NCBI GenBank assembly: GCA_963921795.1
Contig: OY997647.1
Coordinates: forward strand, 56,806,668 to 56,870,667
Origin: Nannobrachium achirus
Lineage: Eukaryota > Chordata > Actinopteri > Myctophiformes > Myctophidae
DNA length: 64,000 nt
Direction of reading: 5' to 3'
Made by a program: the position numbers and the translations under genes. Shown here one piece after another: positions 16,151-48,202 of this stretch. The notes beneath the pieces are model-generated. The model saw only the letters and a list, made by a program, of their open reading frames with translations. It was not told where the DNA came from and did not search any database. Numbering within the stretch: the stretch's first letter is position 1; every line of letters starts with the position of its first letter.

Positions 16151-16209
<59 letters not shown>
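16151..16209. repeat. (TG)n microsatellite
   Basis: About 29 uninterrupted TG dinucleotides, immediately before the first copy of the ~1.9-kb tandem unit. Confidence 0.95.
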
Positions 16210-23147
<6,938 letters not shown>

Positions 23148-23212
23148 AGGGGGGCGGGGAGGGGAGGGGCAAGGAGGGGTGGGGCTTATGCAAACTTTAC
23201 CCTATAATTGAG
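23148..23212 (+). promoter_or_regulatory. Candidate promoter of the Helentron gene
   Basis: A run of GC boxes (GGGGCGGGGAGGGGAGGGGC) is followed by the octamer-like TTATGCAAA and the TATA-like CCTATAATTG at 23201-23210. The next credible splice donor on the plus strand is CAAG|GTAAGA at 23324/23325, giving a plausible short untranslated first exon. Inferred from motif order only; there is no transcript evidence. Confidence 0.4.
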
Positions 23213-23239
23213 AGACACACACACTCACAGAGACACACT

Positions 23240-23324
23240 CACCTAGTGCTGCCAGAGCCTATAGCATAACGGATTCCTGCCTGCATCTTCTTCACTCTTT
23301 GGCGACTTCAGAGAGAAATCCAAG
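23240..23324 (+). other. Probable 5' untranslated exon
   Basis: The right edge is a consensus donor (CAAG|GTAAGA). The matching acceptor would be the pyrimidine-rich CTGTCTTTCTAAGTGAACAG ending at 24998, 14 bp before the start codon at 25013. The left edge is only a guess from the TATA-like box. The intron would be about 1.67 kb and contains a (TG)n tract at 24165-24198 but no recognised gene. Confidence 0.35.
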
Positions 23325-24161
23325 GTAAGACACTGCTGATTCTAAGACTACTTTTTATTAACCAGTCTTTACTAGCCACTGTGGACAGAGCGGCTGTGGG
23401 CCCCTGTGACACAGTTAGTTTTGCCTTTTTTGTTGTGAGTTGGAATTGTTGACATTTTGGTAAAGGATTCCAATAAGATCAACATTTAAAAATGATTGCT
23501 TATACTCTAGATGTTTTACAAATGAGGTTTACTCTAATAGCTACATCATTATTATTTTATTTATTCTTTACATTAGAATAGTTCATTTGTCTAATGTTGT
23601 TAAATGAGAAACACAGATGTAGTCAAAAGAATGACACAAAAGAATGAGACAAACACTGCAGCAAATATAATGTGAAATGTTTATTTCCAAACTATAATTT
23701 AATAGGTTTACTATCAGCAGCTTGTGGCAGCCTTGCCTATGCCTTTGTGCAATGTATTTGTGGTACAGGAAGACAGTAGCTTTAAGTTCTATTTAATGTC
23801 TAAATTATATGTATTGTGTAAATGTCAATTAAGTTAGAAGTGTAAATTCATAGCATAACACCTTTATATCAATGAGAAGGTGGAAAATTAATTAACAGTA
23901 TTACCTTCAAATCAGTGGTTAAAATGGAGGTTTTAGAAGTCTGGCTGGGTTTCACAGAAAGAGTGCTGTATGAACGTCTTTCAACTGTTAGAATGCCACA
24001 TTCACGCCTTTGTATGACTGGGAGGCACACATGTTAATGAGCTGCAGGGGGTTAATGGCTTCTGGGTTAGAATCCATGTGTGGTGTTAAAGAGCCCATGG
24101 CAACCTTTAAATCATATGGGCCTGTTGGATACAATGGAAATACTGCAAAGTATAGAGAAAC

Positions 24162-24202
<41 letters not shown>

Positions 24203-25012
24203 GCGCCCCCTTTGCCAACAAAACATGGGACATTGCTTATTTATTTCACTATAACATGCATCTGTACGTTTGTAACTCACTGTCTTTTGTTCATTTAATG
24301 TGCAACTCTGTGGAGCATTTTGGCCATTTCACCACTCACGAAGTTGTACTGCAAACTTTTGGAAATATAAGAGGTTGTTTAAAAACACCTTTTTTTATCT
24401 GGGCAATCATATTACACTCTTGATAGGTGAGCAGGCTGTGTTTTATCCAGATATTGTCTGGCTGGGTGTAGTTATGTCAGACATAGGAGGTGTCTTTCCA
24501 GCATGGGTCATTGGAATAAGCATTTAGTTAAATCTTTATTAACAAAGTATTGTGAATAGGTTCAGTGTCAGCAGATTGTGGCAGCTTTGCCTGTGATTTA
24601 ATGTTCAAATTAAGTGTATTGTGTAATTCCATTGGAACTTTGCTTAATGTCTTTCTATTCTGTGTGTTATATCCCTAGGGACTCCTGGACACAGTCTGCT
24701 TTTACAGAGAGTGCTCCTGCTTCAACAGACTTGTGCCTGCTGTTAGGTGGTATATGCATCACACATCAAAGAATATATTGTAACATAAAATACACACCTA
24801 GACACACACAGACTTTCTATCTCTCTGTCTAACTCTGTCTCTCTCTGAGTGTCTCTCTTTTTCTGTCTGTGTCACTGTGTCAGTCTTTGTCAGTATCTTC
24901 TCTATCTCACTGATCTTATTATATATTGCTTGTCCCAGGTTCTTAATTGTATTGTTAGTAAAACTTTTGGTTTGAGTTCTGTCTTTCTAAGTGAACAGGT
25001 ACTAGCAGAAAG

Positions 25013-25542
25013 ATGCCGAGACGAGGCAAGCGGTCTACAGCAGCTGTGCAGAGCCATGCCAGAAGGGCTGCAGGTGTAGCTTCTGGAACCGGCTCAGTAG
25101 CACTGCCTGGCGAGGTAAATACAATGTTACAACTGAATGTTGAAAGTGTTTGTAGCAAGAAAGTACTGATCTTATGTCAGTTCTCTATGTTGTCATTTTG
25201 GATCAGAGTATATGTCGACATGTTTTCTTATTCTTTTTTTGGGTGTTTTGTTTTGTAGATGGGAAACATTGTGCAACCATTAGTCCAGGTAGATGTGAAA
25301 CAAAGAACTTCTTCACCTTCCTCCTCACCACCGCGCAAGGTATATTGCAGTGATTTATTTGTGGGTATCACATAATATGTGAAGTTATGCAAATCTTCTG
25401 TTGGGAAATGGATTAACTTACAGGATAACTTTTGCAGTGGAAAAGTTAGTTATGCGAACTTATAATAAATGCTTCCATCAAACAGGTGGCTCGCCTTTGT
25501 AAGTCTCCTGGAGAGAGCAGCCAGACTGCAATGGTGGAACAG
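25013..25542 (+). CDS. Coding exons 1-3: basic N-terminal region
   Basis: Exons 25013-25114 (34 codons, starting [20 protein letters not shown]), 25259-25339 (27 codons, ending in a run of Ser and Pro then RK) and 25486-25542 (19 codons). Donors read GAG|GTAAAT, AAG|GTATAT and CAG|GTATGC. The product is rich in Arg, Lys, Ser and Pro, looks disordered and could hold a nuclear localisation signal. No domain recognised. A long intron (25543-26179) follows. Confidence 0.7.
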
Positions 25543-28500
25543 GTATGCTATTTCAGAATCTTCATTATTGTGGCAGTCAAAACACCACTTCATACTGTAT
25601 GTTACACAGTGCATCTTTTTTTTCATTACACTGAAAAGAGGACAAAGCACTCTGGCTGTGTTCATGTCTTTTCACAGATATCTGATGTTGTGTTTTGAGC
25701 GAGATGGTTCTGTTAATAGAGCACTTGACTGCTTGAGCAATATGAAGGCACTACACCTGTGTCAAACTTTTATTCAGCAAAACGTGATCCAGCCTTACAA
25801 TGTCACATGTTCCGTGCATTCCGACAACACAGGGATGGTGACAGAACTTTCGTTTAAACACCCAGTACAGAAATTCAATCATGGCTAGACTTTTCTCCCT
25901 GCTGCTTGCTTGTTGGGTTAAGTGGCATTTCAAGTAACAGACTCATCTCCTAGCTTTTGCTGTGTCCTGAACTTTCACCCTTCAGACTTCTGCTAAAATC
26001 ATTTCAATGACATCTCATTCCCCTTTCGTCATCTATATTGATTGTTCATTTAGTGAGATTATCTTGGTTCTTTTATTGATGTATTAGGTGCTTATTGTAA
26101 ATCACTTTGGATTAATATGTCTGTGAAAATGGCAAAAATGTACTGTCAACACATCTTCCATCTGTTTGTGTGTTTTTAGCTACCACCGGGTGGCACAGGC
26201 ACACGTCACTCCGTCAGGAAGTGGGAAAATTCACAGGTGACAGGAAAGCAGTGGAAGTCTGTCTTCCCAGTAGACTTGTCAAAGAAAAAGGTACTTTCAT
26301 TTATTTGTGTATTAATTGTTGGGGAGTCAATGTGATTGTGAAGCAAAAAGCATTGATTTGGTTCTGTTTCTTGTCTTCCCTTGAAATAGTTTGCACTCGT
26401 CATTGGGGATTCTCATCTACGCTCGATTGTTGATGGATATGTCAACATGCCAAAGTCTGATGTCAGCTTTGGTTTCATGTCCTACCCTGGAGCAAAAGCA
26501 GCAGAGTTGAACCTTGAAGTGAACCAGGCTGACGTGCCACATGTGCCGGACATGGTCTGCATTATGGCTACTAGTAACAACATTAGTGGTCACAGTCCGA
26601 GTCAGGCAGGACATGACTTCCGCCAGCTGCTGGAAACAGCCAAGTTGCGCTGGAACCATGTAAGTGGTTTGTTACAATACTTTTTTCTATTGTGCTAATT
26701 TTAATGCTTGTCAAAGTTTGAGAAGGAGTTGTTTTTGACATTCAACACTTGTGTTTTTTATAGGTTTTCGTGCTTGACTTTCCGCCGCGCTTGAATGTGG
26801 CCATTGGACACCAGAACGCTCTTCGCGATGCGTTTAAAAGTGCAGCAAATTTCTGTGGTGAGTAATGGAAATGCATACATAACAGATAATGTGTGGTTAG
26901 GTTGATGTAACAATGTGAGTCATTGTCCGCTTGTACACCGCATAGTTGTGACAAATAGTCCCTAAAAATAGGGATGCAAGGGTTGTAGTTGTCGCGGGCA
27001 TTTTGAACCATTTGAGGGCAGATTCATCTTTCAGTGTATTACACTACATGTACAGTAGATACCACCATATTTGTTGTTGTGGGGTATTTTTTGAATAATA
27101 TTGTTTGTGAATGTGATGTGATGGTTGCTTATCTGACCTATGATCTGTTTATATTTAGATGTGACCTACACTGGTATCGCAGATCTGTTCCCACTGACAC
27201 AGTCTGAACTCTGGTGTCGTGACAACGTAAGTGTAATCGGTGTTTTAAAAAGCCACATGAAGATTATGCATTATTTTAGATGATATGAACACAACATAAC
27301 ATATGGAGTAATGACATCTTACAATGTATATTGGATTGTAAATATTTGTTTTGTCTCTCTTAGATTCATCTTAGTGATTCTGTTGGCCAGGCTGTTTTTG
27401 CACTTGCAATTGTCATGGCAGTTGAAAACGCATTGCAGCGTACAGTGCAGACACCACAGGTTTGTCCACACATCTTACAACTACATAAATACAAGGTAAA
27501 ATGACATGGTTCCTATTTTCTAGTCTGTAAAATTTTTTGTCTTTGTATGTGTAGGGGTCTCCGAAGAAGTTGCATTCCAAGCCAGCACTCATCCCACCAA
27601 CACCTATACGTACAGTGTCTCCAAGAGTGATTGTCAGTCGAGAAGTGCGTGTTCCACGCTCACCAACTGTGAAGGTAAGTGTTGAATATTGTCACTGCTT
27701 TGTGAAAAGGGATACTCTGTTATGTTATTAAATAGGGATGTTTGATATTATTGGCTGATATTTGTATAAAAACAAATGTCTGAATAGCAGTTGGGCTTTC
27801 TGGAAAAAAACACATTGCATTTTTACTTGAGGTGATTCTTTTTAGTAGTTTAAATCATTTTCAAAATGATAATTACCTAACAAACAGTTTGGGACATACA
27901 AGGGTTCCACCCCACAACAACTATATATCAGTATTGGTTAATATTTGTATTGGACAGGAGCAGATGGATGTATGGCTTAATGGTCAAAGGATAATATCAC
28001 ATATTCTTAGTATTCACATTTCACTCATCACTCTGCATTTGTCATTTCAGCTGAGTCAACATCCTGTACGTCCTGCTCATTCTGCTTGGGTCTTACAGCA
28101 GCAACAGCAGCAGCAACAGGTTAGAACCGTCTTGATACTTACTGTTAGGGCCAAGTGTGTGTTCTACTCACTTTGTTTTATTTAGGAGTAGCAAACATTG
28201 TTCTCAATCAACTGCGCACATAGCTTTGACTACTGAACCAAACATGTGTTCTATTCCACAAACATGCAGTCCATTGACAGCCTCACATGATGTATGAACT
28301 GTACAGATACTCACATGAAGTGTGTGTGTGTCTATGTTTTTTGTATAGCCTGGCAGTGTCAGATGGATGACATGGATACATACATGACTCTATGAGATTA
28401 TACCCATTGCAGAGTTTGACTATAGGCGGAGAGCATGAGAAATACAAAAAGAAAATGAAAATTTATATTTATGGCACATTTAATAATTGTATTGTCTTTC

Positions 28501-31500
28501 TTTCTTGCTTTCATGCTTTCTTTCTTTCTTCCTTCTTTCAAAAGGATGGCTCACCAGAGAGTTCAATCCCCCGCAATCCTGTGTGGTTTTGCCCTAAAGT
28601 CTTGGATGCTATGGAAACCTTCCAACCATCCAACTCAAACAGCCCTGTGGAGTGCCGAGGTTTTCCAAAGGCCAGCCAGGTAAATGGAAAGCAAAGTGTA
28701 TCTGTTGTTTAGGCCTTATTTAATGTAGACACATACAAAATATCAAAATTATGCAAGAAACTACACACAGGGTTTCCACTGTCCTGGCTAACAAAGGTTT
28801 TGTTTGTTTCTATGTGCAGGCAAGCCCTCCAAAATCACCTCGGAAGTATCTGCACAGACCACTGTCAACACCGCCTCTCTTCCGAACACTGCCTGTGAGA
28901 TGTGACGTGCCTTCTGCCAGGGTAAGGACATGTGACAGTTATATGTTTCTAGGTATTTGACATGCTGTGAGACATTTACATAGCTTGGTGTGAAGTTATA
29001 ATGTATGTAGATGTGTTAAAGCTCCATGCGAGAGTGATAGGAAACAGTCTGTGCAAGCAGTGCAGCCCTTAAATGATCAGATGTACAACCTCACAAGGTC
29101 TTGCGTCTTCATTGCATAGTACAACCACAGTCTACTACTGTAGTTAAGTTCTACGCAGTCTTATACTGATTGTCATTGAGACTTGAGCAGTACAACCACA
29201 GTCTTCTGAGTGAGACTGGGGCTCATTGCAATAAAAGAGGTTGAGCATGTTTGGTGGAGCATAGGAACATGTACGTTTGCGCTGTCATGCCTAATAAAGG
29301 TTTTGTTTGTTTCAATGTGCAGGCAAGCCCTCCAAAGTCACCGCGCAAGTGTTTGCGCAAATCACACACAACACAGCGTCTCTCCCCAACACTGCCTGTG
29401 AGATGTGACATGCCTTGTGCCACGGTAAGGGGATGTGAAAGTGATATGTTTCTACTTATTTGACATGCTCTGACACATTTACACAAACAGTATGCGCATG
29501 CAGCCAGTCCTGAAATTATCAGATATACAACCTCACAAGATGTTGTCTCTAAATTGCAAAGCTATGCATAGTACAACCACAGTCTACTGCTGTAGTTAAG
29601 TGCAACCACAGTCTTATACTGGTACTCATTGAAAGAATAGCAGTACAAGCACAGTCAAGCTGGGGTCATTGCAATTAAAAAGGTTCAGTATATCTGCTAA
29701 AGCATAGCAACATGTATGTCAAATCTGTTGCTACCTACACACAGTTTCCACTGTTATGAATTGTCATGATATGAACATTGTTTGTTTTTGTGTATAGGAT
29801 GAGTGCTGGGACTTACCGCTCTCATCTACTGAGTGGCCACCACTGCCTTCTCCAGGACATGCTGTGAGCTGCAGCCTGGACGTACCCCTGTCATCTAGTG
29901 TTGTGGTGAGGAGATATGACTTCTAAGTGTGTTACAAAAGAAATGTTTTTCTGATCTTTATTTGAGTGTTTATTCTTTATTTTTGGGGGGTAAATTCACT
30001 CAGTGTGACAGCAAATCGCTTGTTACTTCGTCAGTGCATCTGTCTGTGACACGTCACACTTTTGCCCTGTTAATATCTCTCCAATGGTTGCACTGATCCA
30101 TGCCAAATTGTGCACACATAATCCTTGTCTGCCAAATCACAACCTCCACCCATTAATTCCCACATGACCCTCTTCTAGCGCCACCCTGAGGCCGATTCTT
30201 GCAAAACACATTTTTGAACACGACTGCTACAGTTTTTGCCCTAAAATCACACTAATCGGTACACAGTATGTCTACACTCATGACATCAGCATGGATCTGT
30301 CCCATATAGCGCCACCTTCAGGCTGATTTTTTACAATGTATTGACAATAGCTTATAACATTACCACTACATAGGATCCACTGGGACATAGGTTCTACTCA
30401 AAAGTAACTGTTTTGGACATGTATACAAATAACAAAACTATATCACTATTATGGATGTGTTGATTTGACATTTATCATTGTTTTTGTTTGTTTTTTTTGT
30501 CAACAGATGGAGACGGACTGTTTCATCCATGAAGTTCATCTTCCCGGTCAACCACCCACTGTTGTAAGAGCATCTTCTTGCCAAGGCGAGATATTGGACA
30601 ACATATTGGACGACCCAAACGACCCCAACTCCAAAAGGTCAAACAGTCAGTGCACATGCATGGCACTGACTTTTCTGGCTCAACAACATGAGGGAATGTG
30701 TTTTGACACACCCTCCCTTGACAATGTGCTTGAAAATGGAGATATTCTCTATAAAGGCGTTATAACACAGCATCAGTACGACAACAGGCTTGTACTACCA
30801 TACTTAGCCATAGAGGAGTTACCAAAACAGGTTTTCACGGAAAGCAATGTTTATAGTGCGTTGTGGGATAACTCTGATATTAAGGCTGGTTTTGTAAAAA
30901 GTTCTGCTTGTAAAAGTGAAAGGACTAGTGAACGTTTGCCGTATCTTGAGGAGAGTCTGCAGTGCTTATCAGAGAATGTAACCTATGCTATCCTTATAGT
31001 AGCTCCTGAATGCTTTGCATTGTTCCGTGACACATCAGGCCGCTATGGATTTTTTGACTCTCACTCCAGATGTGCCATGGGTTTGCCACAACCTCAAGGA
31101 AAAGCAATACTGCTGATTTTCAATGATCTGCGTGGTTTGCTTGGCCATCTGCACAAACTTTTTGAAGAGCGCCCTCTTGATGTGATGTTTGAGCTTTTGC
31201 CTGTCTCATTTCGGATTGATGATGGGACTCCTGGACCATCAACAGCTATGTCCATGTCAGCAGCTAGAGCAGCAACTGACCATGTTCTGTGTGAGACCCC
31301 TGGACCATCAACGTACGTGACAAGCACAGCGGCAATCAACTGTTGCTCCAGTGACACCCCTGTGCAGTCAACCGAAGTGACTGCTCTGCCAGCAATCGAC
31401 CGTAGCTCCAGTCAGACCCCTAGACTGTCACCCAATGAGACAATCACAGCAGCATTGCCAAAACTGCGAGTTTTTGACTTATGTGTAAGGAGTGGAAGAA

Positions 31501-34500
31501 GGCAAGATAATCAAAGTTGTCAAGCAGTCAGAGCCAGTATTTGTCAAGGGGACATTGTTGGACAGCACCTGAACAAACAGTGCAGCTGCATGGCGCTCAC
31601 ATTTCTTGCTTACCACAATGACGGAGTGGATTTCAACACACCTTCACTTGACAAAGTACTTTACCAGGGAGATGCGCTGTACAAAGACTTAATACGGCAG
31701 CCGCAGTTTGACCAACTGTTACAGGAACAGTGTTATCTATTGTCCATGGAGCAGCTACTCTATGCCAAGCATATTTCCACCAACCAAAATGTTTACAGTG
31801 TACAACTGGACATGGCAAAGCTTAAAGTTGGTCCCCTGGAAAACACAAAAGGGAAAAACTTGTCACTTGCTGAACAACTGCAGAAGAGTCTGTTAGAGGA
31901 GGGGGTCAAGCATGCCTTGTTGATGGTAACCCCTGAATGCTTTGGAGTATTCCGCCACAGTTCAGGTTGCTATGGATTCTTTGACTCCCACTCGAGGTCT
32001 GCAGCCGGTTTGTTTGTTCTTGGAGGCAAGGCCATTATGTTGACTTTCCAAGACCTGAGTGCTCTGCTCTGTCACTTGCACAAAATCTTTAAAGACCGTC
32101 ACCCTGGTGTTTCATATGAGCTCATGCCTGTTGCATTTGAACTGGACAATATCGGCAATACAACACCAGCAGAAGCAACACATGCAGCAGCTGTTCCCAC
32201 ATATACGCTTTCCAAACTAAATAAATCAAGGCGTAGAAAGAACAAGCGGAAACTCATGCAGAAACAGGAAGAGTGCCTTGAGCAAAATGTACCTCATGCA
32301 AACAAGACCTCTAATCCTCTCAAGGGCTTGAGAACCTCTAATCCTCTCCTATATTATAAAATGAGATATAGAATTCCTGAAGTTTGCCGGAAGACACTTG
32401 TGGCACGAAGAAACAGATGGATCACCGATGCTGTTTTCCGCGCTAGAGTCAAAGCCTACCGGTGTGAAAGGACTCAAAACTACCCAGAATTCAAGTGGCG
32501 CCATAAACAACAACAACGTGACCGTAAAAGGCTTAATGACCCAGAACGCAGGCAGCGCCATATAGCGCAAAAGGTCCAACGCCAGCGTGAAAGGCTTAAT
32601 GACCCAGAATTCAGGCAACGGCATATGCTTCAAAAGGCCAAAAACCAGCGTGACAGGCTTAATGACCCAGAATTCAGGCAACGGCATATGCTTCAAAAGG
32701 CCAAAAACCAGCGTAACAGGCTTAATGACCCAGAATTCAGGCGCCACCATATACAACGATGTGCCGAAAGACAAAAACAGAGACGCGATGTTGATGTCAT
32801 ATTTCGAATCCGTCACAAGTTGCAGTGTGCCATGAGAATAAAGAGGAAATCCATACACATTGTAAACCGTCACTTGCGATTAACAATGGAAGCTGCCATG
32901 GAAGAAGCCATATCAGCATTTCGAGAAAGCGTTAAATATGGGCCTACATACGTCTGTACCGTGTGCCACAGAGCCATGTTCTCCAATCAGGTCCGTTGCT
33001 GTAACAGAGACACATACAAGAAAAACCCTTCCGTGGTAACTGCTTGCTTAACAGGCAAGTATGTGCACACATGCAACACTGAATGCTCAGACCCATGCAA
33101 CGTTGCACAAGAGAGGAGACACGAGTACATCTGCCACTGCTGTCACAACAACTTGGATATCGGCAAGATGCCATCCATAGCAGCTGCTAATAAGCTGGAA
33201 CCAGCACCTGTTCCCCCAGAGTTGCAATTGTTGAATATGCTGGAAAGGCAGATGATTGCAAAGTTCTTACCCTTTGCAAAAATCATTTCCTTGCCTAGAG
33301 GACGGCAAAAGGCAGTGCATGGTGCTGTGGTGTGTGTCCCGTCGCAAGTGGAAGCTTTGGTAAACGCTCTTCCGAGGTCCAGCAATGACGACCAGCTGTT
33401 GCATGTTAAACTGAAGCGACACATTAACTTCAAGGGCTATCAATTCTTCTACACGGTAAACATGACAAATGTGTTGGCGGCGCTGAGAGAACTCAAACAA
33501 ACGCATCCAGAATACTATGACATTGTCATAAACGATAATGCTACGTTTGACCGTTTCCAAGATGAGCAGTCAGGCGATGAAGATGCAACAGAGGAAACCC
33601 CTGCTGCCTTCACAGATGGCCAGCAGCAGGAACCCTTACATGCCATCACAGATGAGCCTCAAGCGCATGACGAACTCCCACCCAGTCCGTCCACTGCTGG
33701 AACAACAGATGAACAGCCGCAGCAGGAGCTTAGACCCGGTCTGACCTTTGACACATGCATGCAGCCTCCAAACATAGCACAGGAGATCTTATCATTCGGT
33801 GAGGGAATATTCAGCATTGCACCAGCACAAGGAAACAGGCCGGTAGGTATTTTCGCTGTCAGCAACCTGGAAAGCATGGCCTTCCCTGGGCATTTCCCAG
33901 ACGGTCGGAACACATTGCATGAGGTCAGAGAAGTCAAATTATCCCCAAGTAGATATTTCAATGCCAGGCTCTTTTCTGTCGATACCCGCTTTGCCACCGA
34001 CCAAACTTACCTCTTTTATGCGCAGATGGCAACAGAAACACACATGGCTACTAATAGCATGTCCATCCAGGTACGGAAGGGGAAAAAATATACCAGGGAT
34101 GGACGGGTTCTGTCAAACAAAATGCTTCAGGATAAGGAAGAGGTAGAAACACTTGTACGCAACAAGGACGCAACACGCTTCATGCAGCCCCTTAGAGGAA
34201 CTCCGTCCTTTTGGGAGAAAGCGCTTAGAGACCTTCTCGCTATGTCTAGACAGATCGGCAGGCCCAATTGGTTCGTCACGCTAAGTGCTGCGGAGATGAG
34301 GTGGCCAGAACTCATCAACATCATAAAAGCGCAACAAGGTGAACAAGGGGACTATTCACAGCTGGACTGGGTTGCCAAATGTCAAATCATCCGGACCAAT
34401 CCAGTCACACTCATGCGTATCTTTTCACACAGATTTGACAGGGCCATAGATTTTCTTCACTCACCTGCTAGGCCAATCGGTGAGGTTGTGGATTACTTCT

Positions 34501-37500
34501 ATAGGGTGGAATTTCAGGCCAGGGGAAGTCCCCACGTTCACATGATGGTATGGATCAAAGACGCACCGACGTGTGATGACCCGCGCGTCATCAAGTTCAT
34601 AGACACCTACGTCAGTTGCAAAATGCCTGACCAGTATGCAGACCCAGAGCTGCACAAAATTGTTTCTGAAGTTCAAATGCACAGCCGAAGCCACTCCAGG
34701 TCATGTAAGAAAGGAAACGTCAGTTGTAGATTTGGGTTCCCCAAATTACCAATGGACAAGACAATCATCACTGAACCGCCACATGACATCGAAGATGGCA
34801 GTGACGATGAGGCCGAAAAAGCTGAAAGCAGTGGTGGGCAGACAGCCCAACCACATGCACCTTTAAATGATGCCAAAGGTGACAACAAGGACCAAAACCA
34901 TGAAAACGTTGGTGGCAAGAAAGGGCAAAGGCAAAAAGGCAGGAGGCTCGAAACTAAAGAACAAATGCAAGCCAAAGAAAAGCTGGCACCCCTGAGGGAC
35001 ATGCTCTGTGACCCAAAAGCCTCATTCAAAGATTTGCCTGACCTGTTGGGCAAATGCAACATGACTGCAGAGGAATACCGGGAAAACGTGGACAACCTTA
35101 CCACTGCACGCAGCATTCACCTGGAACGCCGTCCTGATGAATGCTGGATAAATCCGTACAATCCCCCTCTGCTGCGAGTGTGGGATGCAAATATGGATAT
35201 CCAATACATACTGGATGATTACAGTTGTGCACAGTACATGATGGGGTATGTTGCAAAGCCGGAACATGAAATGTCCCAACTCCTTACCGAAGTGGTAAAA
35301 GAAGTTCGCAAGTCTAACCCCAACGCCAACAAAATGGATGAAATGAAACATATCATGCACACATACGTCCAGCACAGAGAGGTCAGCGCCCAGGAATCTG
35401 TCGCCCGAGTATGCAGTCTCCCACTTAAAAAGTGCAGCCGTCAAGTAATTTTCTTACAGACAGACGAGGATGGCCTGCGAATGAGTCAGCCCATGAGCAA
35501 ACTGAATGGGTTGGACCCAGACTCACAAGACGTGTGGATGGCAGGGATTCCTGAGAAGTACCTGAACAGGCCTCAGGAGCCAGAATTTGAACAGTTGTGT
35601 ATGGCCACGTTTGCCTCGGAATACAGGGTGGTGTACAAACAAGGGGGCGAAAACACAAAAGCACTGCTGAATGACATGGGCTTTGTTCAGAAACGAACTA
35701 AGCTCGATAAGGTGGCCATCATACGTTTCACACGTTTCTCTGAGCAGAAAACCCCAGAAAAGTTTTACAGACGGATGTTGAAACTGTACATGCCCCACAG
35801 AGAAGACGCCCAACTGAAAAGCAAGAGCTGTCCCACTTATGAGGAGTTCTACAAAAACGCTCACGTGCTTGTAGGTGAAAAACATAGGACACACTGGTCT
35901 GTGAAAAACATTGTTGATCAAAACAAAGCCAAATATGAAGGCCAGGGCAAAACAATTGACCAAGCTCTGGAAATGTTGCAAGCACACCAACCTATCCTTG
36001 ATGCATGGAAAACTTTTGATGCAGATGCAGAAGATGTTTCCCTCAAGCAGCGAACAGCCAGCGATCTACAAGAGAAAGACGCCGTACCAGACTACCAAGT
36101 GCAGGCCAACAACGGTAGGGCAATGCCAGGAATTGATGCTCCTGAATTGAATCCAGACTATGTCAGAAGCATGTTTCAAGGCCTCAACGAAATGCAAGCG
36201 TCCATTTTCTACACTGTGCGTCAATGGTGTTTGAAACGTGTCTGGCGACAGGAGCCTGCTCCGTTCTACTATTTCATCTCTGGGGGTGCTGGCTGTGGCA
36301 AGTCTCATGTCATCAAGTGCATATATCATGAGGCTACCAAGATTCTGCGCAAACTTCCCTACTTTCTCAATGAAGCAGACATGACCCAGCCGGCAGTTCT
36401 GCTGGCAGCGTTTACCGGCACCGCAGCTTTCAATATCTCTGGGAGAACCCTGCACTCATTGCTGAAGCTACCACAAAGTATGAAGGGCCCGTATAAATCG
36501 CTTGGAAATGCACTGGATGGGATGAGGGCAGCACTGTGGACTGCAGAGATCTTAATCATTGATGAGATATCCATGGTTTCTAACGACATCTTTAACTACG
36601 TCGACTTAAGACTCCAGCAAATCAAAGGCAACAGGAAACCCTTTGGTGGAATGTCTGTCCTGGCGGTCGGAGACTTCTACCAGCTGGCACCAGTTTGTAA
36701 CACAACGCTCTGCAATGCTGATGAGGTTGTGCGTGGTGTCTGGGCAAATTTTCTGCTGGCCGAACTTACAGAAATCATGCGTCAAAGAGATGATCGCATT
36801 TTTGCCGAACTCTTGAACAGGTTAAGAGTAAAGGAAAAGTCTGATCCTCTCAGTGCTGAAGACAGGGCTCTGCTCACACAGGCTTGCACAGAAAGAGAAG
36901 ACGGCCCATATGATGTCCTTCATATATTTGCTAGAAATTCAGAGGTCAAGACCCACAACAAAAAGGCTATAGCAACTCTTGGCACACCCATTTTCAGCGT
37001 TATGGCCCAAGATTTCTACAAGGACAGATGCTCAGGTCAAATGAAGCCGCTGGCCAAGGCCAACGAGAACGGGACCCAAAGCGACTTGGCAGAAATTCTC
37101 GAAGTTGCGGAAGGAGCGCGGGTCATGGTCATTAGGAATCTGGATGTGGAAGACGGGATCGTGAACGGCACGTTTGGAACGATAGCCAACATTGTTTTAA
37201 CCACTGCAAACGGATGTACGGTTGTGGACTTACTTGGCCTCAGATTGGATAGTCCCACAGCAGGTCAGAACTTCCGCAGGAAGATTCAAGGCCCAACAGA
37301 TGATTTGGTGTACATTCAAAGGTCTGAGGAGAACCTGGCCAACAAATCACTGGTGCGACGGCAGTTCCCCCTGAAACTGGCTTTTGGGTGTACAACCCAC
37401 AAAGTTCAAGGCATGACCGTCAGTTCTGCAGTGGTGTCTATGAAGATGATGCAAAACTCTGGAATAGCTTACGTTGCACTGAGCCGAACAACCTCGCTTC

Positions 37501-38336
37501 AAGGGCTCAGAATCAAACACTTTGATGAAAGCAAGATTTATGCCAACCCAAACATAAAAATGGCAATGCAGAACATGAATCGCGCTTCCTTCCAAGTGAC
37601 GAGACCACTGATGCATTTTGTGGAACAGTGGTCCGGGGGTCCCACATTAACCATTGTCCATCACAACACACAAGGACTGATGTCACACATTCACGACGTG
37701 AAGGCTCACCACGAGTTCAAACACGCTGATTTGTTGTTGATGACAGAAACTCATTTGTCTGGTAATTCCATTCCCACACAAGTTGAGCTGGACGGATACC
37801 AGTTGGTTACACATAACAGACATGGGTCTTATACCAGCGCCAACACTCAACACATTGCTACAAAAAAGGGAGGTGGAGTTGCAGTCTACTACAGGAGCAG
37901 TCTTCAAGCAGACCCTTGTAGGTTGGTTGAAAATGTCAGCGATGTGGAGTTTGCAGTTGTCAGAGTTGAGGCCCCAGTGAAAGCGCTCATAGCCACTGTC
38001 TACAGACCTCCAAAATACAAGGACAGCGACTTTTGTCTCAACCTTGGACGTCTCTTAGACTCTTTGGCCCTGATGGACTGCCAACCAATTGTTGTCTGTG
38101 GTGATTTCAATGAGGACCTCCTCAAGATGGGACACAAACCTGTTAAGGAGCTCTTTGAGTCCAAAGGCTACAGCCAGCTTATCGCCACTGCAACAACCCA
38201 AGAGCAGACCCTGATTGATCACATCTACATATCACAACCACAGACTTGCCTTCAGAAGGGTGTACTGCACACCTACTACAGTTACCATGATGCAGTATAC
38301 TGTGTCTTGACTTCAGCAGCACCAATTATGGAGTGA
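25013..38336 (+). CDS. Helentron (Helitron2) replicase, spliced, 15 coding exons, ~3,114 aa
   Basis: Large multidomain protein for rolling-circle transposition. Exons: 25013-25114, 25259-25339, 25486-25542, 26180-26290, 26390-26659, 26764-26857, 27159-27226, 27364-27459, 27555-27674, 28051-28119, 28545-28679, 28820-28921, 29323-29424, 29798-29905, 30507-38336. Every intron is GT-AG; all are phase 0 except the one after 26857 (phase 1). The 15 exons join without a stop or frameshift (505 + 2,609 residues). Order: basic N-terminus, SGNH hydrolase, Ser/Pro linker, two C76-like cysteine-protease domains, basic 21-residue repeats, Cys/His cluster, HUH Rep, Pif1-like helicase, EEP endonuclease. Rep-helicase-endonuclease is the known Helentron plan; SGNH and the doubled protease are additions. 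The start at 25013 is the first ATG after a good acceptor. An open frame this long argues for a recently active or constrained copy. Splicing is predicted from sequence only. Confidence 0.85.
26180..26290 (+). CDS. Coding exon 4: linker before the SGNH domain
   Basis: 37 codons in phase 0 between acceptor TTTTTAG and donor AAG|GTACTT. The product, starting [15 protein letters not shown] and ending in a Lys run, has no recognised domain of its own; it leads directly into the first SGNH block. Confidence 0.7.
26390..27459 (+). CDS. Coding exons 5-8: SGNH/GDSL-type hydrolase domain
   Basis: Four exons (26390-26659, 26764-26857, 27159-27226, 27364-27459) encode about 176 residues with the blocks of the SGNH hydrolase fold. 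Block I is VIGDSHLR with the nucleophile Ser at 26411-26413. Block II Gly lies in SYPGAKA. Block III Asn is in ATSNNIS (first Asn at 26576-26578). Block V is DNIHLS, with Asp at 27221-27223 at the end of exon 7 and His at 27367-27369 at the start of exon 8. All catalytic positions are therefore retained, split by a phase-0 intron. Family members are esterases, lipases or acetylhydrolases; an SGNH domain is also known in ORF1 of some CR1-like LINEs. The substrate cannot be read from sequence. Confidence 0.8.
27555..28679 (+). CDS. Coding exons 9-11: Ser/Pro/Gln-rich linker
   Basis: Exons 27555-27674 (40 codons, with GSPKK, PPTPIR and PRSPTVK), 28051-28119 (23 codons ending in LQQQQQQQ) and 28545-28679 (45 codons, DGSPESS to FPKASQ). 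All are phase 0 with consensus borders; the exon-11 acceptor follows a long CTTT pyrimidine run. The product looks disordered and carries repeated SP/TP dipeptides that could be phosphorylation sites. Confidence 0.7.
28820..29424 (+). CDS. Coding exons 12 and 13: tandemly duplicated exon
   Basis: Exons 28820-28921 and 29323-29424 are both 102 bp and phase 0 and encode related peptides: [26 protein letters not shown] and [26 protein letters not shown]. Intron sequence on both sides is also duplicated: TTTTGTTTGTTTCWATGTGCAG before each, ATATGTTTCTA..TATTTGACATGCT after each, then GTACAACCACAGTCTACT near 29120 and 29573. The duplication therefore covers at least 400-500 bp of genomic DNA. Confidence 0.75.
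29798..29905 (+). CDS. Coding exon 14: linker to the large exon
   Basis: 36 codons between acceptor TTTGTGTATAG and donor GTG|GTGAGG, with peptide [17 protein letters not shown]. It joins in phase 0 across a 601-bp intron to 30507. That intron holds two copies of a TAGCGCCACC-type repeat (30176-30200 and 30308-30330), related in core sequence to the satellite half-unit end. Confidence 0.65.
30507..31230 (+). other. Domain: C76-like cysteine protease (deubiquitinase-like), copy 1
   Basis: Residues 1-240 of the large exon. The putative nucleophile is the first Cys of [10 protein letters not shown] (codon 30651-30653). The Asp/His pair is in GFFDSHSR (His codon 31062-31064). The order Gln-Cys, ~135 residues, then Asp-x-His, with the hydrophobic strand [14 protein letters not shown] between, resembles the herpesvirus-tegument-type N-terminal protease fold (peptidase C76, Herpes_teg_N), a deubiquitinase family that I recall also being annotated next to Helitron domains in animal genomes. 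Assignment rests on motif recognition. It is not the OTU protease reported in many Helentrons. Confidence 0.65.
30507..38336 (+). CDS. Coding exon 15: protease-Rep-helicase-endonuclease, 2,609 codons
   Basis: Single exon open for 7.8 kb. The reading frame extends upstream to an ATG at 30465, but those 14 codons (Phe/Val-rich) are the pyrimidine tract and CAACAG acceptor of an intron, so the exon is placed from 30507, where ATG GAG ACG follows the AG. If this exon were used alone, 30507 would also be a good start. Stop TGA at 38334-38336. All core Helitron motifs are present without frameshift; see the domain entries. Confidence 0.93.
31230..31460 (+). other. Domain: Thr/Pro/Ser linker with four short repeats
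   Basis: Between the two protease copies the protein repeats TPGPST, TPGPST, TPVQST and TPRLSP every 25-30 residues, each followed by an Ala/Thr-rich stretch. It is probably a flexible spacer. Internal repetition suggests it grew by local duplication. Confidence 0.7.
31460..32175 (+). other. Domain: C76-like cysteine protease, copy 2
   Basis: A clear homologue of copy 1: Cys in [10 protein letters not shown] (codon 31581-31583) and Asp-Ser-His in GFFDSHSR (His codon 31989-31991), with shared landmarks [30 protein letters not shown] and ELMPVAFEL. The two copies are diverged along their length but both keep every putative catalytic residue, which argues that both are functional rather than one being a decaying duplicate. 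Confidence 0.65.
32205..32905 (+). other. Domain: highly basic region with 21-residue repeats
   Basis: Lys/Arg-rich, starting [10 protein letters not shown]. Four 63-bp repeats begin at 32530, 32593, 32656 and 32719, each encoding [11 protein letters not shown] followed by a basic helix such as [10 protein letters not shown]. Repeats 2 and 3 are almost identical at the DNA level. A likely role is nucleic-acid binding or nuclear import. Confidence 0.75.
32945..33535 (+). other. Domain: Cys/His cluster and Helitron N-terminal conserved region
   Basis: [26 protein letters not shown] and ICHCCHNNL form a zinc-binding-like cluster (about 32950-33150). Next comes the block [20 protein letters not shown] (about 33270-33330) and a block ending [13 protein letters not shown]. 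This arrangement precedes Rep in many animal Helitron proteins (DUF6570-like). An acidic/Pro/Gln-rich linker follows (33545-33770). Confidence 0.7.
34060..35265 (+). other. Domain: HUH Rep endonuclease (Helitron_like_N)
   Basis: Motif 1 is in [18 protein letters not shown] (about 34260-34313). The metal-binding motif is [10 protein letters not shown] with the two His at 34533-34535 and 34539-34541. The catalytic tyrosine motif is YMMGYVAK, matching the Helitron form YxxxYxxK, with Tyr codons at 35235-35237 and 35247-35249. Between them lies a charged, probably disordered insert (about 34790-34985). The domain nicks and joins one strand to start and end rolling-circle replication. All catalytic residues are retained. 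Confidence 0.93.
36140..37580 (+). other. Domain: Pif1-like SF1 helicase
   Basis: Walker A GGAGCGKS at 36282-36305; [13 protein letters not shown] (motif Ia region); Walker [11 protein letters not shown] with Asp-Glu at 36561-36566; GDFYQLAPV (motif III); LTEIMRQ with Arg (motif IV); [31 protein letters not shown] (motif V) and [13 protein letters not shown] (motif VI). This is the complete Pif1/RecD2-type set seen in Helitron RepHel proteins. It would unwind DNA ahead of or behind Rep during transposition. Confidence 0.95.
37640..38330 (+). other. Domain: AP-endonuclease-like (EEP) C-terminus
   Basis: Endonuclease/exonuclease/phosphatase fold of the kind carried by Helentrons and LINEs. Landmarks: [19 protein letters not shown] (metal-binding Glu), [29 protein letters not shown] (Asp/Asn at about 38102-38110), LIDHIYIS and [10 protein letters not shown] at the C-terminus. 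The last motif is usually Ser-Asp-His; here the residue before His is Tyr (codon 38283-38285), so activity is uncertain. Its presence at the C-terminus places the element in the Helentron group rather than canonical Helitron1. Confidence 0.85.
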
Positions 38337-38995
38337 TGTGGTTGATGGGATTGCTTTCAGATGACGCTGACCCTATAAAGAGTTAAATTTGTGTATAGCA
38401 TTGGGGCACACATCGTCGGCAGTACAGAATGTCTACTTTGCCTCTCATCAACATGCCTGCCACTTTGACAGACAGTTATCTAACGTCATTGAGTTATCAG
38501 GGTCTCAGCAAAAAGTTGGCCATCTGCAACTTTATAATGTAAGGCAGATCGTTGCACATCAGGCAACTGAAGCATTGCCCTACCTGCGAATGATTACATG
38601 ATGTAATATCAATCTCTTACAGACCTATGTGCTGCCAAATGGCACACACTCGATCTGCCTTGCCTGCTGTATCAAATTTTATTTAAAGACCAAAAGTAAG
38701 AGTACAAGCTATTAGTAGATACATATAACTGAACCAAACAATTGCATGATGGCCAAGGGTGAAATTACATTTCAATATCTTCAATGTCACAGTGTCAAGG
38801 TTAATCTGTTTTGGAACCTATGTCTTGTACATGTGCCGAGACTGTGACCCACTACAAGGACAGAGAGGATGAGGAGAGAAATGTGGAAGTGTACAACCAC
38901 TTTTATTAAAGGAAAATAAAACATTCTATGTCCTTGATTATGAGTCCACAAGACTAATTCAAAACACCATCTCATGTTCATTGTTATGTTTAACT
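38337..38995 (+). other. 3' untranslated region with poly(A) signal
   Basis: No further coding similarity follows the stop. The first good AATAAA on the plus strand is at 38915-38920 (GGAAAATAAAACATT). Others occur in the repeat that follows (for example 39391-39396). Confidence 0.5.
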
Positions 38996-39009
38996 ATCCA
39001 ATGAATGCT

Positions 39010-39790
39010 TGCCAGGTCTATTTCCACTGTACCTATTAAAGTTTCTTTGTAAAATGATGTTACATTCTATTCAGATTCAGATTGAGAAAGAAAGAAAAAC
39101 ATGTTTCTTGTACTGTACCACTGGACATCTATTCTGTTTGGTCATTGACTTAATATACAGTAAGAGAAAAACGAACTTACACTGTGTGGTCTCCTTTAAT
39201 GTGTGAGACTGCTTTAATCATTCTTGGGGAAACTTTCTGATTCACATGGTATTTAAGGACCAAAAGTCATGTCTATGCTCATTGATTTAATATACAGTAA
39301 GAAACAAATGAACATGCTTGAGAAGTCTGTTTACACTGTACCTATTAAAGTTTATTTGTGAAATGATGTTACATTCTATTCAGATTGAGAACGAAAATAA
39401 AAACATGTTTATTGTACTGTACCACTGGCCATCTATTCTGTTTGCTCATTGACTTAATACAGTAAGAGAAAAACAAACTTACACTGTGTGGTGTCCTTTA
39501 TTGTGTGTGACTGATTTAATAAATCTTGGGGAAACGGTCAGATTCACATGAGATTATTTGTGAAATGATGTTACATTGTACTCAAGAGTCAGAATGAGGC
39601 AGAAAAGAAAAACATGTTTATTGTACTGTCCCACTGAACATCTATTCTGAATTCTCATTGATTTAATATACAGTAAGACAACTTACATTGATTTAATATA
39701 CAGTAAGACAACAAGGGACTTACACTGCGTGGTCTCCTTTATTGAGTGGGAGTGCATTTAATCATTTTTGAAGAAATGGTCTGTTTCACA
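39010..39790. repeat. Tandem repeat downstream of the Helentron gene
   Basis: Units with TGTGAAATGATGTTACATTC, ACATGTTTATTGTACTGT, CATCTATTCTGTTTGCTCATTGACTTAATA and CTTACACTGTGTGGTCTCC start near 39037, 39348 and 39555 (spacings about 310 and 207 bp, the last truncated). A short TTGATTTAATATACAGTAAGACAAC unit is further doubled near 39660-39712. Confidence 0.8.
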
Positions 39791-40934
39791 TGGGATATAA
39801 GTATGAAAAATGAAAGTACAAGGTCTGAGAACATAGAAATATAATTGAACTAAACAATTGCATGATGGCCCATTTGCTTAGATACTCATGTCCCATACGA
39901 ATACATATTCAACTAAAGTTAAACTTAAGGTAGGGTAAATGTTTTCTTTAGATTCAACATCAATACATTTATGGGTCTTAAAATCAATGCGATTTGAGTT
40001 ATAAAGGAAAAACAACATTTTTGGACGGACATCTTGGATTTCAGGGGCCGCCATCTTGAAATTTTGCTTGGCTACCGCTATTTTTGAAAAGAGTGGGAAT
40101 CAAAGCGTATATGTACCAAGTTTCATGCTTGCATCCCAAAGTGAACGATTCTTTTGAAATCACCCATTAATCTGCTTAGCTAATACAACAATTAAACTAG
40201 GAGATAGATTGTCAGGGTTTCAGTTATCTTTTTTCAAATATTTCACATATTCTATTCTATCGACATTTTCTTGAACATTTAGAACTCTCATGAAAACCAG
40301 AGCTGAGCCATAGATCTGTCCTATCCACACACAGTTTGCAGACTGAACTCCACAGCAATAAATGCTCTGCACTGTGTGTGGAGGCCTATAGGCCTGTAAT
40401 GTCAGGGGAACCACTCTAACAAAATGAATTGCTGCTCTGACATCATGCTTTGACTTCACTGTGATGTCACATTAACAGAATCACTTTTATGGCCAGACAT
40501 GGAGTTCCCTGATGTCATTAATATTAAGCCCAGATCTAACAAGACTTCATATGGGAATGCTCATATATGGAAGCCACATCAGCCATATTCCAATCCATAC
40601 ATGGCCAAGACGGACAGCCAAGACAGCCCATATCTGTGTGGCTGGTTCTGTACAGACAAGAATATCCATGTATAGGCATAAAAGCGTATAATGTCAGATA
40701 ACATAGCCATCCCAGGAGTTTCACATGAAATAACTGAATAAGTATGTTTGAGCTCTCACAGCATTTTTCCATATACAGTACATTGATCTCCATATAGAGT
40801 ATACCCTGGTCTCCATATGGGTAACCGGTCCGATATACATCACTGGCCACATAGCCAAGACATGGGCCGAGGCTGCTTGTTACCCTGAGCGTCTTACTAG
40901 TTTAGAAACGGGCAGTACGCAGGACTGTTGAGTA
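39791..40934. other. Dispersed repeats between two parts of the 3' tandem repeat
   Basis: No gene seen. 39880-39990 (CATATTCAACTAAAGTTAAACTTAAGG) resembles 47690-47770. The CATCTTGGATTTCAGGGGCCGCCATCTTG stretch near 40030 looks like common vertebrate repeat debris. 40497-40600 (GTTCCCTGATGTCATTAATATTAAGCCC, CATATATGG) resembles 56262-56325. Because the 3' repeat resumes at 40935, this may be an insertion, but no ends were found. Confidence 0.4.
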
Positions 40935-41190
40935 CCGAAAGCGTACCAAAAGTAATTTCTATGCTCATTGATTTCATATACAGTATGCCAAAAACTAACA
41001 TGCTTCACTGTACCCATTGAAGTTTCTTTTTGAAATGATGTGCCATTCTATTCACATTCAGATTGAGAATGAAAAGAAAAACATGTTTATTGTACTGTAC
41101 CACTGGACATCTATTCTGTTTGCTTATTAACTTAATAGACAGTAAGAGAAAAACAAACTTACACTGTGTGGTCTCCCTCGTCTTCCCGCT
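40935..41190. repeat. Displaced copy of the 3' tandem repeat
   Basis: Matches the 39-kb repeat in order: TCTATGCTCATTGATTT, CATTGAAGTTTCTTTTTGAAATGATG, ACATGTTTATTGTACTGTACC and CTTACACTGTGTGGTCTCC. It then breaks off. It marks where the repeat block continues after about 1.1 kb of other sequence. Confidence 0.75.
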
Positions 41191-41696
41191 TGATATAGGC
41201 TAATCACAAGTTCACAACAGGCAACAACTTTCTCAATTCTTCCTTCTAAAAACAGGCCAGCAGTGAGTGACTGAGTCTGATTTTAGGCTGATTTTAGGCT
41301 ATACATTATTGTGGCTGCGCTGGACTGGTGTACCGAAAATAGCCAAAGTAAAGCTCAGACACAGTCACAACAGCATGATGACAGATTCATGCACTCGACA
41401 TGTGAGCTTGTATATCTGCTATTTTCTTCCACCACTTTACACAGCATAACTTATTATAATTAGGCATATATAACACTACAGTTCATAATGGGAATATCCT
41501 ATGATCTTGATTGAAATATCAACACATTCACGAGCCAGTCGGACGCCAACGTGGCTGTGTCAATGACACCGTAAAGACGCAGAGCAAGGCGACGCAGCCA
41601 GTGGAGCCCTACGCAGCCAACATGTTGTCTAAACAGAGGCGTTCTCAAGGCTGTGTTATATCTCATGAAATATTCATGCGATTACGTCGCCATTGT
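41191..41696. other. No gene recognised; half-copy of the AAATAGCAGATCTACAAGC hairpin
   Basis: 41402-41426 reads GTGAGCTTGTATATCTGCTATTTTC, the right arm of the dispersed hairpin. A 70-codon frame at 41511-41723 has no recognised similarity and runs into a satellite fragment. Confidence 0.4.
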
Positions 41697-41835
41697 AAGG
41701 CAGATCAGAAAGAAAGTTACTAGCACACCATTCCCGGCCAAGCCGCACGTGTTGCTGTATATATTGCAAGGGTGGCGTTAATGGTGGGGGACTAGTAGCG
41801 TGGGAAACTTTGGAGAATCGTATGGACAGAAAGAA
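41697..41835. repeat. Diverged fragment of the satellite spacer
   Basis: GTTACTAGCACACCATTCCCG, then AGTAGCGTG, AACTTTGG and ATCGTATGGACAGA, in the same order as in the satellite spacer (for example 4641-4765), with substitutions. This is an old copy outside the main arrays. Confidence 0.7.
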
Positions 41836-41867
41836 AGACAAAGGTAAATAAATACATAAATAAGGCA

Positions 41868-42025: not shown

Positions 42026-42077
42026 AAGCAGGCGTGGACTCTAGATGTGAGCAACCCGAAGGGCTGCGAACTTCTAG

Positions 42078-48054: not shown

Positions 48055-48200
48055 ACATAAAATGCACAGCACAGTAAGGTAAAGTACAGCACAGTGCAGT
48101 AAGGTACAGCACAGTAAGGTATAGCACAGTACAATAACATACAGTACAGTACAGTAAAGTACAATACAGCACACTAAGGTACAGTACACTACAGTAAGGA
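48055..48200. repeat. TACAG pentanucleotide tract
   Basis: ACAGCACAGTAAGGTAAAGTACAGC and similar, ending CTACAGTAAGGAAGCAAGC. The phrase CTACAGTAAGGAAGCA also ends the tract near 42015-42030. Confidence 0.85.
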
Positions 48201-48202
48201 AG

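What the first reader, a model, noticed from the sequence alone, without database searches (positions are those of the whole stretch)
25013..38336. Apparently intact, 15-exon Helentron with an SGNH hydrolase and two tandem C76-like cysteine proteases
Fourteen upstream exons, all with consensus borders and compatible phase, connect without a stop to a 7.8-kb exon with every Rep and helicase motif. The predicted order SGNH - protease - protease - Rep - helicase - EEP nuclease is richer than the Rep/OTU/helicase/EN plan usually described for Helentrons. Such a protein could combine an esterase and two deubiquitinase-like activities with rolling-circle transposition.
Basis: partly seen in the sequence, partly recalled or inferred. 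Interest (0 to 1): 0.92.

Follow-up and report, generated by a model that had tools for sequence, protein, structure and literature searches.

The report
Fish Helentron with built-in SGNH esterase
A jumping gene in a fish genome appears to encode one very large protein that joins an esterase and two ubiquitin-cutting enzymes to the machinery that copies the element, so a gene once described as a captured passenger may be part of the transposon itself.

Summary
Fifteen GT/AG exons (25013-38336) join into 3,114 codons plus a terminal stop. Exon 15 encodes two tegument-like cysteine proteases (VTD; both match PDB 8ADD, a zebrafish Helitron VTD), DUF6570, HUH Rep, Pif1 helicase and an EEP nuclease, key motifs intact. 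Upstream exons encode an SGNH hydrolase with its catalytic residues. In the raw DNA upstream of exon 15, N-termini of 22 relatives hit only exons 4-9 and 11; an N-terminal motif supports exon 1. Exons 10 and 12-14 lack support. The modules are known: SGNH 'texim' genes beside fish Helitrons (2014), a two-VTD zebrafish Helentron (2022). Not found in print (six searches): texim as the 5' exons of the Helentron gene. Of 33 SGNH-bearing relatives, 14 have SGNH-VTD-DUF6570-Rep-helicase-nuclease in one protein model. Among the 48 sequences compared, only the window has SGNH plus two complete VTDs. No transcript or termini were available, so fusion in this species and full intactness remain unproven.

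The parts
25013..25114 (+). exon 1, start codon, N-terminus MPRRGKRS...
   Evidence: GT donor and phase; similar N-terminus in P0004, P0005, P0006, P0038, P0047; 0 of 22 in tblastn
25259..25339 (+). exon 2
   Evidence: supported only by joined-protein alignment with P0005 and P0006; 0 of 22
25486..25542 (+). exon 3
   Evidence: exon 2/3 join SPPRK-VARL resembles relatives such as P0002 and P0004 by eye; 0 of 22
26180..26290 (+). exon 4, conserved GTG.RH region and start of SGNH domain
   Evidence: tblastn 20 of 22; the two misses, P0009 and P0010, are models that start later
26390..26659 (+). exon 5, SGNH residues Ser125, Gly151, Asn180
   Evidence: tblastn 22 of 22
26764..26857 (+). exon 6, SGNH
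   Evidence: tblastn 22 of 22
27159..27226 (+). exon 7, SGNH, holds Asp260
   Evidence: tblastn 18 of 22
27364..27459 (+). exon 8, SGNH, begins with IHLSD (His263)
   Evidence: tblastn 7 of 22; His in 34 of 34
27555..27674 (+). exon 9, end of SGNH region and linker
   Evidence: tblastn 6 of 22
28051..28119 (+). exon 10, Q-rich linker (unverified)
   Evidence: splice sites and phase only; 0 of 22
28545..28679 (+). exon 11, linker with SIPRNPVWF motif
   Evidence: tblastn 17 of 22
28820..28921 (+). exon 12, linker (unverified, duplicated)
   Evidence: duplicate of exon 13; 0 of 22
29323..29424 (+). exon 13, linker (unverified, duplicated)
   Evidence: 0 of 22
29798..29905 (+). exon 14, linker (unverified)
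   Evidence: 0 of 22
30507..38336 (+). exon 15, 2,609 codons plus stop: VTD1, VTD2, DUF6570, Rep, helicase, EEP nuclease
30564..31232 (+). VTD1, tegument-like cysteine protease, C and D-x-H present
   Evidence: Pfam Herpes_teg_N 4.1e-06 when cut out; 8add_A 1.4e-29
31527..32162 (+). VTD2, second tegument-like protease, C and D-x-H present
   Evidence: 8add_A 5.5e-23; no Pfam match; 45% identical to VTD1
32523..32769 (+). 63-nt repeats within the frame, coding basic 21-residue units
   Evidence: the repeat finder D9
33162..33539 (+). DUF6570
   Evidence: 1.9e-19
33954..34550 (+). Rep (Helitron_like_N), HUH histidines at 34533-34541
   Evidence: 2.1e-32; H1343 and H1345 invariant
35235..35249 (+). 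Rep tyrosine motif, Y1577 and Y1581 of the exon-15 protein
   Evidence: invariant in 9 sequences
36183..37187 (+). Pif1-like helicase with Walker A/B and 2B domain
   Evidence: PIF1 1.5e-21, Pif1_2B_dom 6.8e-06; motif residues invariant
37662..38249 (+). C-terminal EEP (AP-type) endonuclease
   Evidence: Exo_endo_phos 3e-11; N2387, E2414, D2533, D2571, H2572, H2594 invariant

Best explanation
This is the coding body of a Helentron (rolling-circle DNA transposon) of a ray-finned fish. Its one intron-rich gene encodes, in order, an SGNH esterase of the 'texim' kind, two tegument-like deubiquitinases, DUF6570, HUH Rep, Pif1 helicase and an AP-type endonuclease. The SGNH exons are the 5' part of the transposon gene, not a neighbouring captured host gene. 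Shown here: the open joined frame, domain identities, catalytic residues, and the same fused order in protein models of other fish. Inferred from known families: Rep nicks and joins single strands, the helicase drives rolling-circle strand transfer, the nuclease nicks T-rich targets, the proteases remove ubiquitin from transposition proteins or host restriction factors, and the SGNH domain binds or cleaves lipid esters, perhaps at membranes in germ cells, by analogy with the ZfL2-1 retrotransposon esterase. A short SGNH-only splice form may be made as well.
For: Open 15-exon chain. tblastn of 22 relatives hits only predicted exons upstream of exon 15. 33 of 47 relatives carry SGNH; 20 of the 33 also carry Rep (partial, 43 bits, in P0023) and 14 carry SGNH, VTD, DUF6570, Rep, helicase and nuclease. 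One of the 14 is Xiphophorus hellerii P0006; texim was described in that genus. SGNH: G151, N180, H263 in 34 of 34, D260 in 33 of 34, S125 in 31 of 34 (one Leu, two models cut short), window included. An SGNH fold is predicted for the Clupea relative P0040; Foldseek's top hits include SGNH esterases, best E 4.1e-06. Both VTDs match 8ADD and keep C/D/H. SGNH and Rep+helicase distances correlate, Mantel r 0.333, p 0.0001, n 18.
Against: No RNA. The fused relatives are database protein predictions and may chain neighbouring ORFs. Platyfish texim was defined with RT-PCR and RACE products as its own gene, about 1.3 kb, and an SGNH-only 517-aa model labelled isoform X2 exists in Festucalex. Exon 15 opens with an ATG right after the acceptor. 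Exons 10 and 12-14 lack support. The window's SGNH has the longest terminal branch in its tree (0.87) and departs from four columns conserved in at least 31 of 34. Deep nodes of the SGNH and Rep-helicase trees disagree, e.g. P0004; the Mantel test does not remove shared host ancestry. Pfam at E up to 0.01 flags neither SGNH nor VTD in P0006; they are recognised by my own profiles. No termini found.
Confidence: 0.72

Rival explanations
1. Two genes: a texim-like SGNH gene carried beside or within the element as its own transcription unit, and a Helentron ORF that starts at its own ATG at 30507.
For: Tomaszkiewicz 2014 describes texim as its own gene 5' of the Helitron ORF. Of the 12 hits to the 505-aa upstream query 10 show SGNH and none of the other domains, though that search admits only short proteins. 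Exon 15 begins with ATG. Polyadenylation-like hexamers lie in introns 12 and 13.
Against: 20 of 33 SGNH relatives are joined to Rep in one model. The join stays open. P0002 has no Met in the 100 residues before its VTD; P0005 has one about 25 residues before. No AATAAA or ATTAAA in intron 14.
Confidence: 0.2
2. One locus, two products (compatible with the best explanation): alternative splicing or polyadenylation yields both an SGNH-only protein and the full transposase.
For: SGNH-only 517-aa P0036 (isoform X2) aligns over residues 1-513 at 82% with residues 1-586 of the 3,236-aa P0029 of the same species. TeximY is reported with 15 exons and the Helitron in its last intron, i.e. 14 exons upstream, the number predicted here.
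Against: No transcript seen. P0036 and P0029 carry different locus names, so they are different loci. The equal exon number was not tested by alignment, and four of the 14 exons here are unverified.
Confidence: 0.5
3. A domesticated host gene derived from a Helentron rather than a mobile element.
For: No termini found; only one copy lies in the window; domesticated VTD genes are known in insects (PMC9741609 passages).
Against: Rep, helicase and nuclease motif residues are kept; the nearest relative found, P0001, is 72% identical over exon 15. The own genome could not be searched, so copy number is open.
Confidence: 0.1
4. The SGNH exon chain is a chance assembly of ORF fragments.
For: Exons 10 and 12-14 are unsupported.
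Against: Exons 4-9 and 11 are hit by relatives, best E 7e-33, and nothing else upstream is hit.
Confidence: 0.02

Closest known systems
DrT1 Helitron/Helentron of zebrafish (Erven et al. 2022, PMC9741609; PDB 8ADD)
   Same: Two VTD domains, no OTU, AP-type nuclease; both VTDs active deubiquitinases in vitro (abstract, passages and section 8 read).
   Different: No SGNH mentioned in the passages read. In my domain tree its VTD2 groups with P0020, while the window's VTD1 and VTD2 group with each other and with P0001 (support 0.83), so the doubling may be independent; DrT1-VTD1 was not in the tree.
texim genes of platyfish and other fish (Tomaszkiewicz et al. 2014, PMC4021074)
   Same: SGNH hydrolase in many exons 5' of a Helitron ORF; the Xiphophorus hellerii relative P0006 aligns with the window over residues 1-386.
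   Different: Published as a separate captured gene, not as the first part of the Helitron protein; no texim sequence from that paper was compared here.
P0001, unnamed ENA protein of 2,795 aa
   Same: 72% identity to the exon-15 protein, the highest of the eight aligned; two complete VTDs.
   Different: No SGNH in the deposited model; its contig is only 11,121 bases, so absence from the element is not shown.
Uncharacterized fish proteins, e.g. P0005 (Doryrhamphus), P0006 (Xiphophorus hellerii), P0022 (Salarias)
   Same: SGNH-VTD-DUF6570-Rep-helicase-nuclease in one model.
   Different: One VTD instead of two; 7 of the 14 full models list an OTU domain (PF02338) in their precomputed Pfam lists.
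ZfL2-1 ORF1p esterase of a zebrafish non-LTR retrotransposon (PMC3905857, outline and abstract read)
   Same: SGNH esterase as a module of a transposable element.
   Different: Retrotransposon; a profile of ten short SGNH relatives matched no solved structure by sequence at E up to 1.

Membership tests
Helentron | HUH Rep with two catalytic tyrosines | tested here: met
   Helitron_like_N 2.1e-32; H1343, H1345, Y1577, Y1581 invariant in 9; which residues are catalytic is recalled
Helentron | Pif1-like helicase | tested here: met
   PIF1 1.5e-21; Walker A and B residues invariant
Helentron | C-terminal AP-type endonuclease fused to Rep-helicase | tested here: met
   Exo_endo_phos 3e-11 after the helicase
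Helentron | Subterminal inverted repeats, 3' palindrome, insertion in T-rich target | tested here: inconclusive
   exact inverted 11-mers between 21405-25012 and 38337-41710: 2, shuffle mean 3.9; 12- and 13-mers 0; palindrome and target not examined
VTD / C76-like deubiquitinase | Homology to a proven VTD, with Cys and Asp-x-His | tested here: met
   8add_A 1.4e-29 and 5.5e-23; C, D, H in both
VTD / C76-like deubiquitinase | Deubiquitinase activity | not testable with these tools
   needs an assay
SGNH hydrolase | Catalytic S, G, N, H | tested here: met
   S125, G151, N180, H263, with D260
SGNH hydrolase | SGNH fold | tested here: inconclusive
   met for relative P0040 (mean pLDDT 75; top Foldseek hits include SGNH esterases; TM-score by query 0.39-0.52 among the 50 listed, by target up to 0.72); the window's own domain was not folded
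texim | SGNH exons 5' of and beside a Helitron ORF in fish | tested here: met
   exons 4-9 encode SGNH, the Helentron exon starts at 30507
texim | Separate, testis-enriched transcript | not testable with these tools
   no RNA data
OTU-bearing Helentron | OTU domain | tested here: not met
   no OTU among Pfam hits for the exon-15 protein at E up to 1 or for three of its pieces at E up to 10; the whole-protein scan also missed VTD1, so a diverged OTU elsewhere is not fully excluded

The most novel reading that the evidence does not exclude
'Texim', described as a gene captured by fish Helitrons, is really the 5' exon set of the Helentron's own multi-exon gene: a transposon that by alternative splicing makes a short SGNH esterase and a giant esterase-deubiquitinase-transposase, with deubiquitinase capacity varied by doubling VTD or adding OTU modules. 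The window would be the first seen combination of SGNH with two complete VTDs.
Probability: 0.5. Interest if true: 0.66.

Novelty: new variant of a known kind. Interest (0 to 1): 0.5.

Why it matters
If the SGNH exons are part of the Helentron gene, published cases of a 'captured' sex-linked gene (platyfish, guppy) need re-reading as pieces of a transposon, and texim copy number or Y-linkage could reflect element activity rather than selection for male function. It also makes testable why rolling-circle transposons keep an esterase and deubiquitinases together with the transposase.

Tried and rejected
Pfam on the whole exon-15 protein gave no Herpes_teg_N at E up to 1; cut out, VTD1 is recognised but VTD2 is not, and VTD2 is identified through 8ADD. 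A strict letter pattern for VTD catalytic residues gave false 'None' entries; reading alignment columns corrected this: 34 of 41 domains have C, D and H, five of the others are models cut short before the Cys, and P0024's first and P0032's VTD are degenerate. The idea that OTU-bearing relatives have dead VTDs was dropped (10 of their 11 domains keep C/D/H). By the numbering in PMC9741609 (C322, D451) the 8add letters as printed put one residue fewer between Cys and Asp; I did not resolve this and rely on the conserved Cys and D-x-H columns. The terminus search found nothing above chance (one search lists 25 of 139 inverted pairs without a control). A viral-contig scan matched 53 stretches, none confirmed. 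Literature searches for a printed SGNH-Helentron fusion: 30 of 44 papers listed; 5 of 1,793; 15 of 16; 15 of 327; 15 of 369; 15 of 17; none seen in listings, abstracts and the parts read. Rfam and tRNA scans of the window were empty. Selections: one search kept 18 sequences (17 relatives and the window) with SGNH and with Rep and helicase stretches over 150 aa; one search used 22 of the 33 SGNH relatives, first 620 residues each; one search aligned 10 of the 12 hits, where only the 7,991 candidates sharing most words had been scored.
Full report
What is there. The 44 of 47 relatives that carry an organism name in the search tables are ray-finned fish; the window's species was not identified. 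Fifteen exons between 25013 and 38336 join into an open frame of 3,114 codons plus stop, every intron GT..AG and phases compatible. The last exon, 30507-38336, is 2,609 codons plus stop. hmmscan gives DUF6570 (1.9e-19), Helitron_like_N Rep (2.1e-32), PIF1 helicase (1.5e-21), its 2B domain (6.8e-06) and Exo_endo_phos (3e-11), in that order along the protein. Before them lie two tegument-like protease domains, 45% identical to each other: VTD1 hits Herpes_teg_N at 4.1e-06 when cut out, and the two hit PDB 8add_A, the zebrafish Helitron VTD, at 1.4e-29 and 5.5e-23. Cys and Asp-x-His are present in both. HUH histidines, two tyrosines, Walker A and B residues and nuclease residues are invariant in an alignment of nine; which letters are catalytic in Rep, helicase and nuclease is recalled family knowledge.

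The upstream exons. The joined 505 residues match PF19040 (SGNH) only weakly, 0.0038, below cut-off. Relatives settle the identity: several list Lipase_GDSL_2 (precomputed lists; the matches of P0005, P0037 and P0040 have E 7.6e-07 to 2.3e-05 but lie below the family's cut-off). Over 34 aligned SGNH domains, the window included, G151, N180 and H263 are present in 34, D260 in 33, S125 in 31 (one Leu, two models cut short). A model of the Clupea relative P0040 (mean pLDDT 75; 125 of 285 residues at 90 or more) resembles SGNH esterases, thioesterase I and PAF-acetylhydrolase; best E 4.1e-06, 78 matches at E 0.001 or less, modest TM-scores. A sequence profile found no solved relative.

Is the exon chain real? 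I searched the raw window with the first 620 residues of 22 relatives. Between 24000 and 30506 they hit exons 4 (20 of 22), 5 (22), 6 (22), 7 (18), 8 (7), 9 (6) and 11 (17) and nothing outside predicted exons. Fifteen of the 22 had been found through exon 15 or P0005, seven through the joined protein. Exon 1 is supported by the N-terminus MPRRGKRS, similar in P0004, P0005, P0006, P0038 and P0047, and by joined-protein alignments with P0005 and P0006 that start at residue 1. Exons 10 and 12-14 rest on splice signals and frame. Exons 12 and 13 are a duplicate pair whose 18 differences fall 4, 10, 4 on codon positions, with the exon no better conserved than its flanks. Introns 7 to 14 are all in phase 0, so skipping whole exons among 8-14 would not break the frame.

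Is SGNH part of the transposon? Of 47 relatives from three searches, 33 carry SGNH. Twenty of the 33 also carry Rep, and 14 have SGNH, VTD, DUF6570, Rep, helicase and nuclease in one model. The third search admits only short proteins and the second started from an SGNH region, so these shares are not natural frequencies. Two complete VTDs occur only in the window and P0001; P0024 has one complete and one degenerate. SGNH and Rep+helicase distances over 18 proteins correlate (Mantel r 0.333, p 0.0001). Pairs P0002/P0006, P0005/P0010, P0026/P0029 and P0032/P0034 recur in both trees; P0021/P0022 pair in the SGNH tree, but the Rep-helicase tree puts P0032/P0034 between them; deeper nodes disagree (P0004, for example), so module exchange or noise is possible, and host ancestry was not removed. 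In the unrooted Rep-helicase tree, 8 of the 11 models without SGNH lie together (six carp, goldfish or loach by name, two unnamed); the other three (P0001, P0003, P0008) sit beside SGNH carriers and may be cut short.

What is already known. Tomaszkiewicz et al. 2014 (PMC4021074; passages and the whole Results section read) describe texim, an SGNH gene family of fish next to Helitrons, as captured and mobilised; teximYa and teximYb have 15 exons, and the Helitron lies in the last intron of teximY/1, which leaves 14 exons upstream, the number predicted here (not tested by alignment). Its transcripts are enriched in testis for several copies; texim2 and texim3 were highest in brain in one population. 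A guppy paper repeats the capture view (PMC7643365, passages). Erven et al. 2022 (PMC9741609; abstract, passages, section 8) report VTD domains in Helentrons, including zebrafish DrT1 with two active VTDs and no OTU. Thomas et al. 2014 (PMC4067079; passages and one section) discuss OTU proteases as possibly helpful captured modules and describe Helentron termini. Two reviews by title (PMC6431247, PMC5718144; passages) mention GDSL esterases in rotifer retroelements and OTU proteases in Helentrons; the passages seen do not join SGNH to Helitrons. Schneider et al. 2013 (PMC3905857, outline and abstract) show that an SGNH esterase of a zebrafish retrotransposon is active and binds phospholipids. 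I found no printed statement that texim and the Helentron proteins are one gene (only parts of the longer lists were shown).

How it most likely works. Rep nicks and transfers one strand, the helicase unwinds, the nuclease opens T-rich targets; these steps are inferred from the families. The two VTDs probably remove ubiquitin, as DrT1's do in vitro, protecting transposition proteins (a role Erven et al. suggest) or blunting host control (inference). The SGNH domain probably acts on or binds lipid esters, perhaps helping the complex associate with membranes in germ cells (inference by analogy). Whether all travel as one polypeptide, are cleaved apart, or are also made as a short SGNH form is open.

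Limits. The genome behind the window could not be searched, so copy number, age and termini are unknown. The inverted-repeat test found fewer matches than shuffles. No RNA was available. The fused relatives are database protein predictions.

Noticed in passing
1-16059 and 44218-50611: A tandem array with a unit of about 1.46 kb (pairs about 77-97% identical) flanks the Helentron region on both sides; a diverged fragment (70-72%) lies at 41711-41854. The unit phase at 16059 and at 41711 does not join simply, so a clean insertion into the array is not shown.
   Followed up: partly
16151-21404: Three tandem units of about 1.9 kb, 95-99% identical, with long TG microsatellites, lie 5' of exon 1.
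   Followed up: no
39000-41176: Repeated segments of about 130-260 nt, 71-91% identical, lie 3' of the last exon; polyadenylation-like hexamers occur from 38905 on.
   Followed up: no
32523-32769: 63-nt repeats code basic 21-residue units between VTD2 and DUF6570; similar repeated units are seen by eye in relatives P0002 and P0005.
   Followed up: no
28772-29483: A 209-nt segment with exon 12 is duplicated 503 nt downstream with exon 13, 85% identical.
   Followed up: yes
4826-7125: An approximately 0.8-kb unit, 98-99% identical between its copies, interrupts the left tandem array; parts of it recur at 42075-42970.
   Followed up: no
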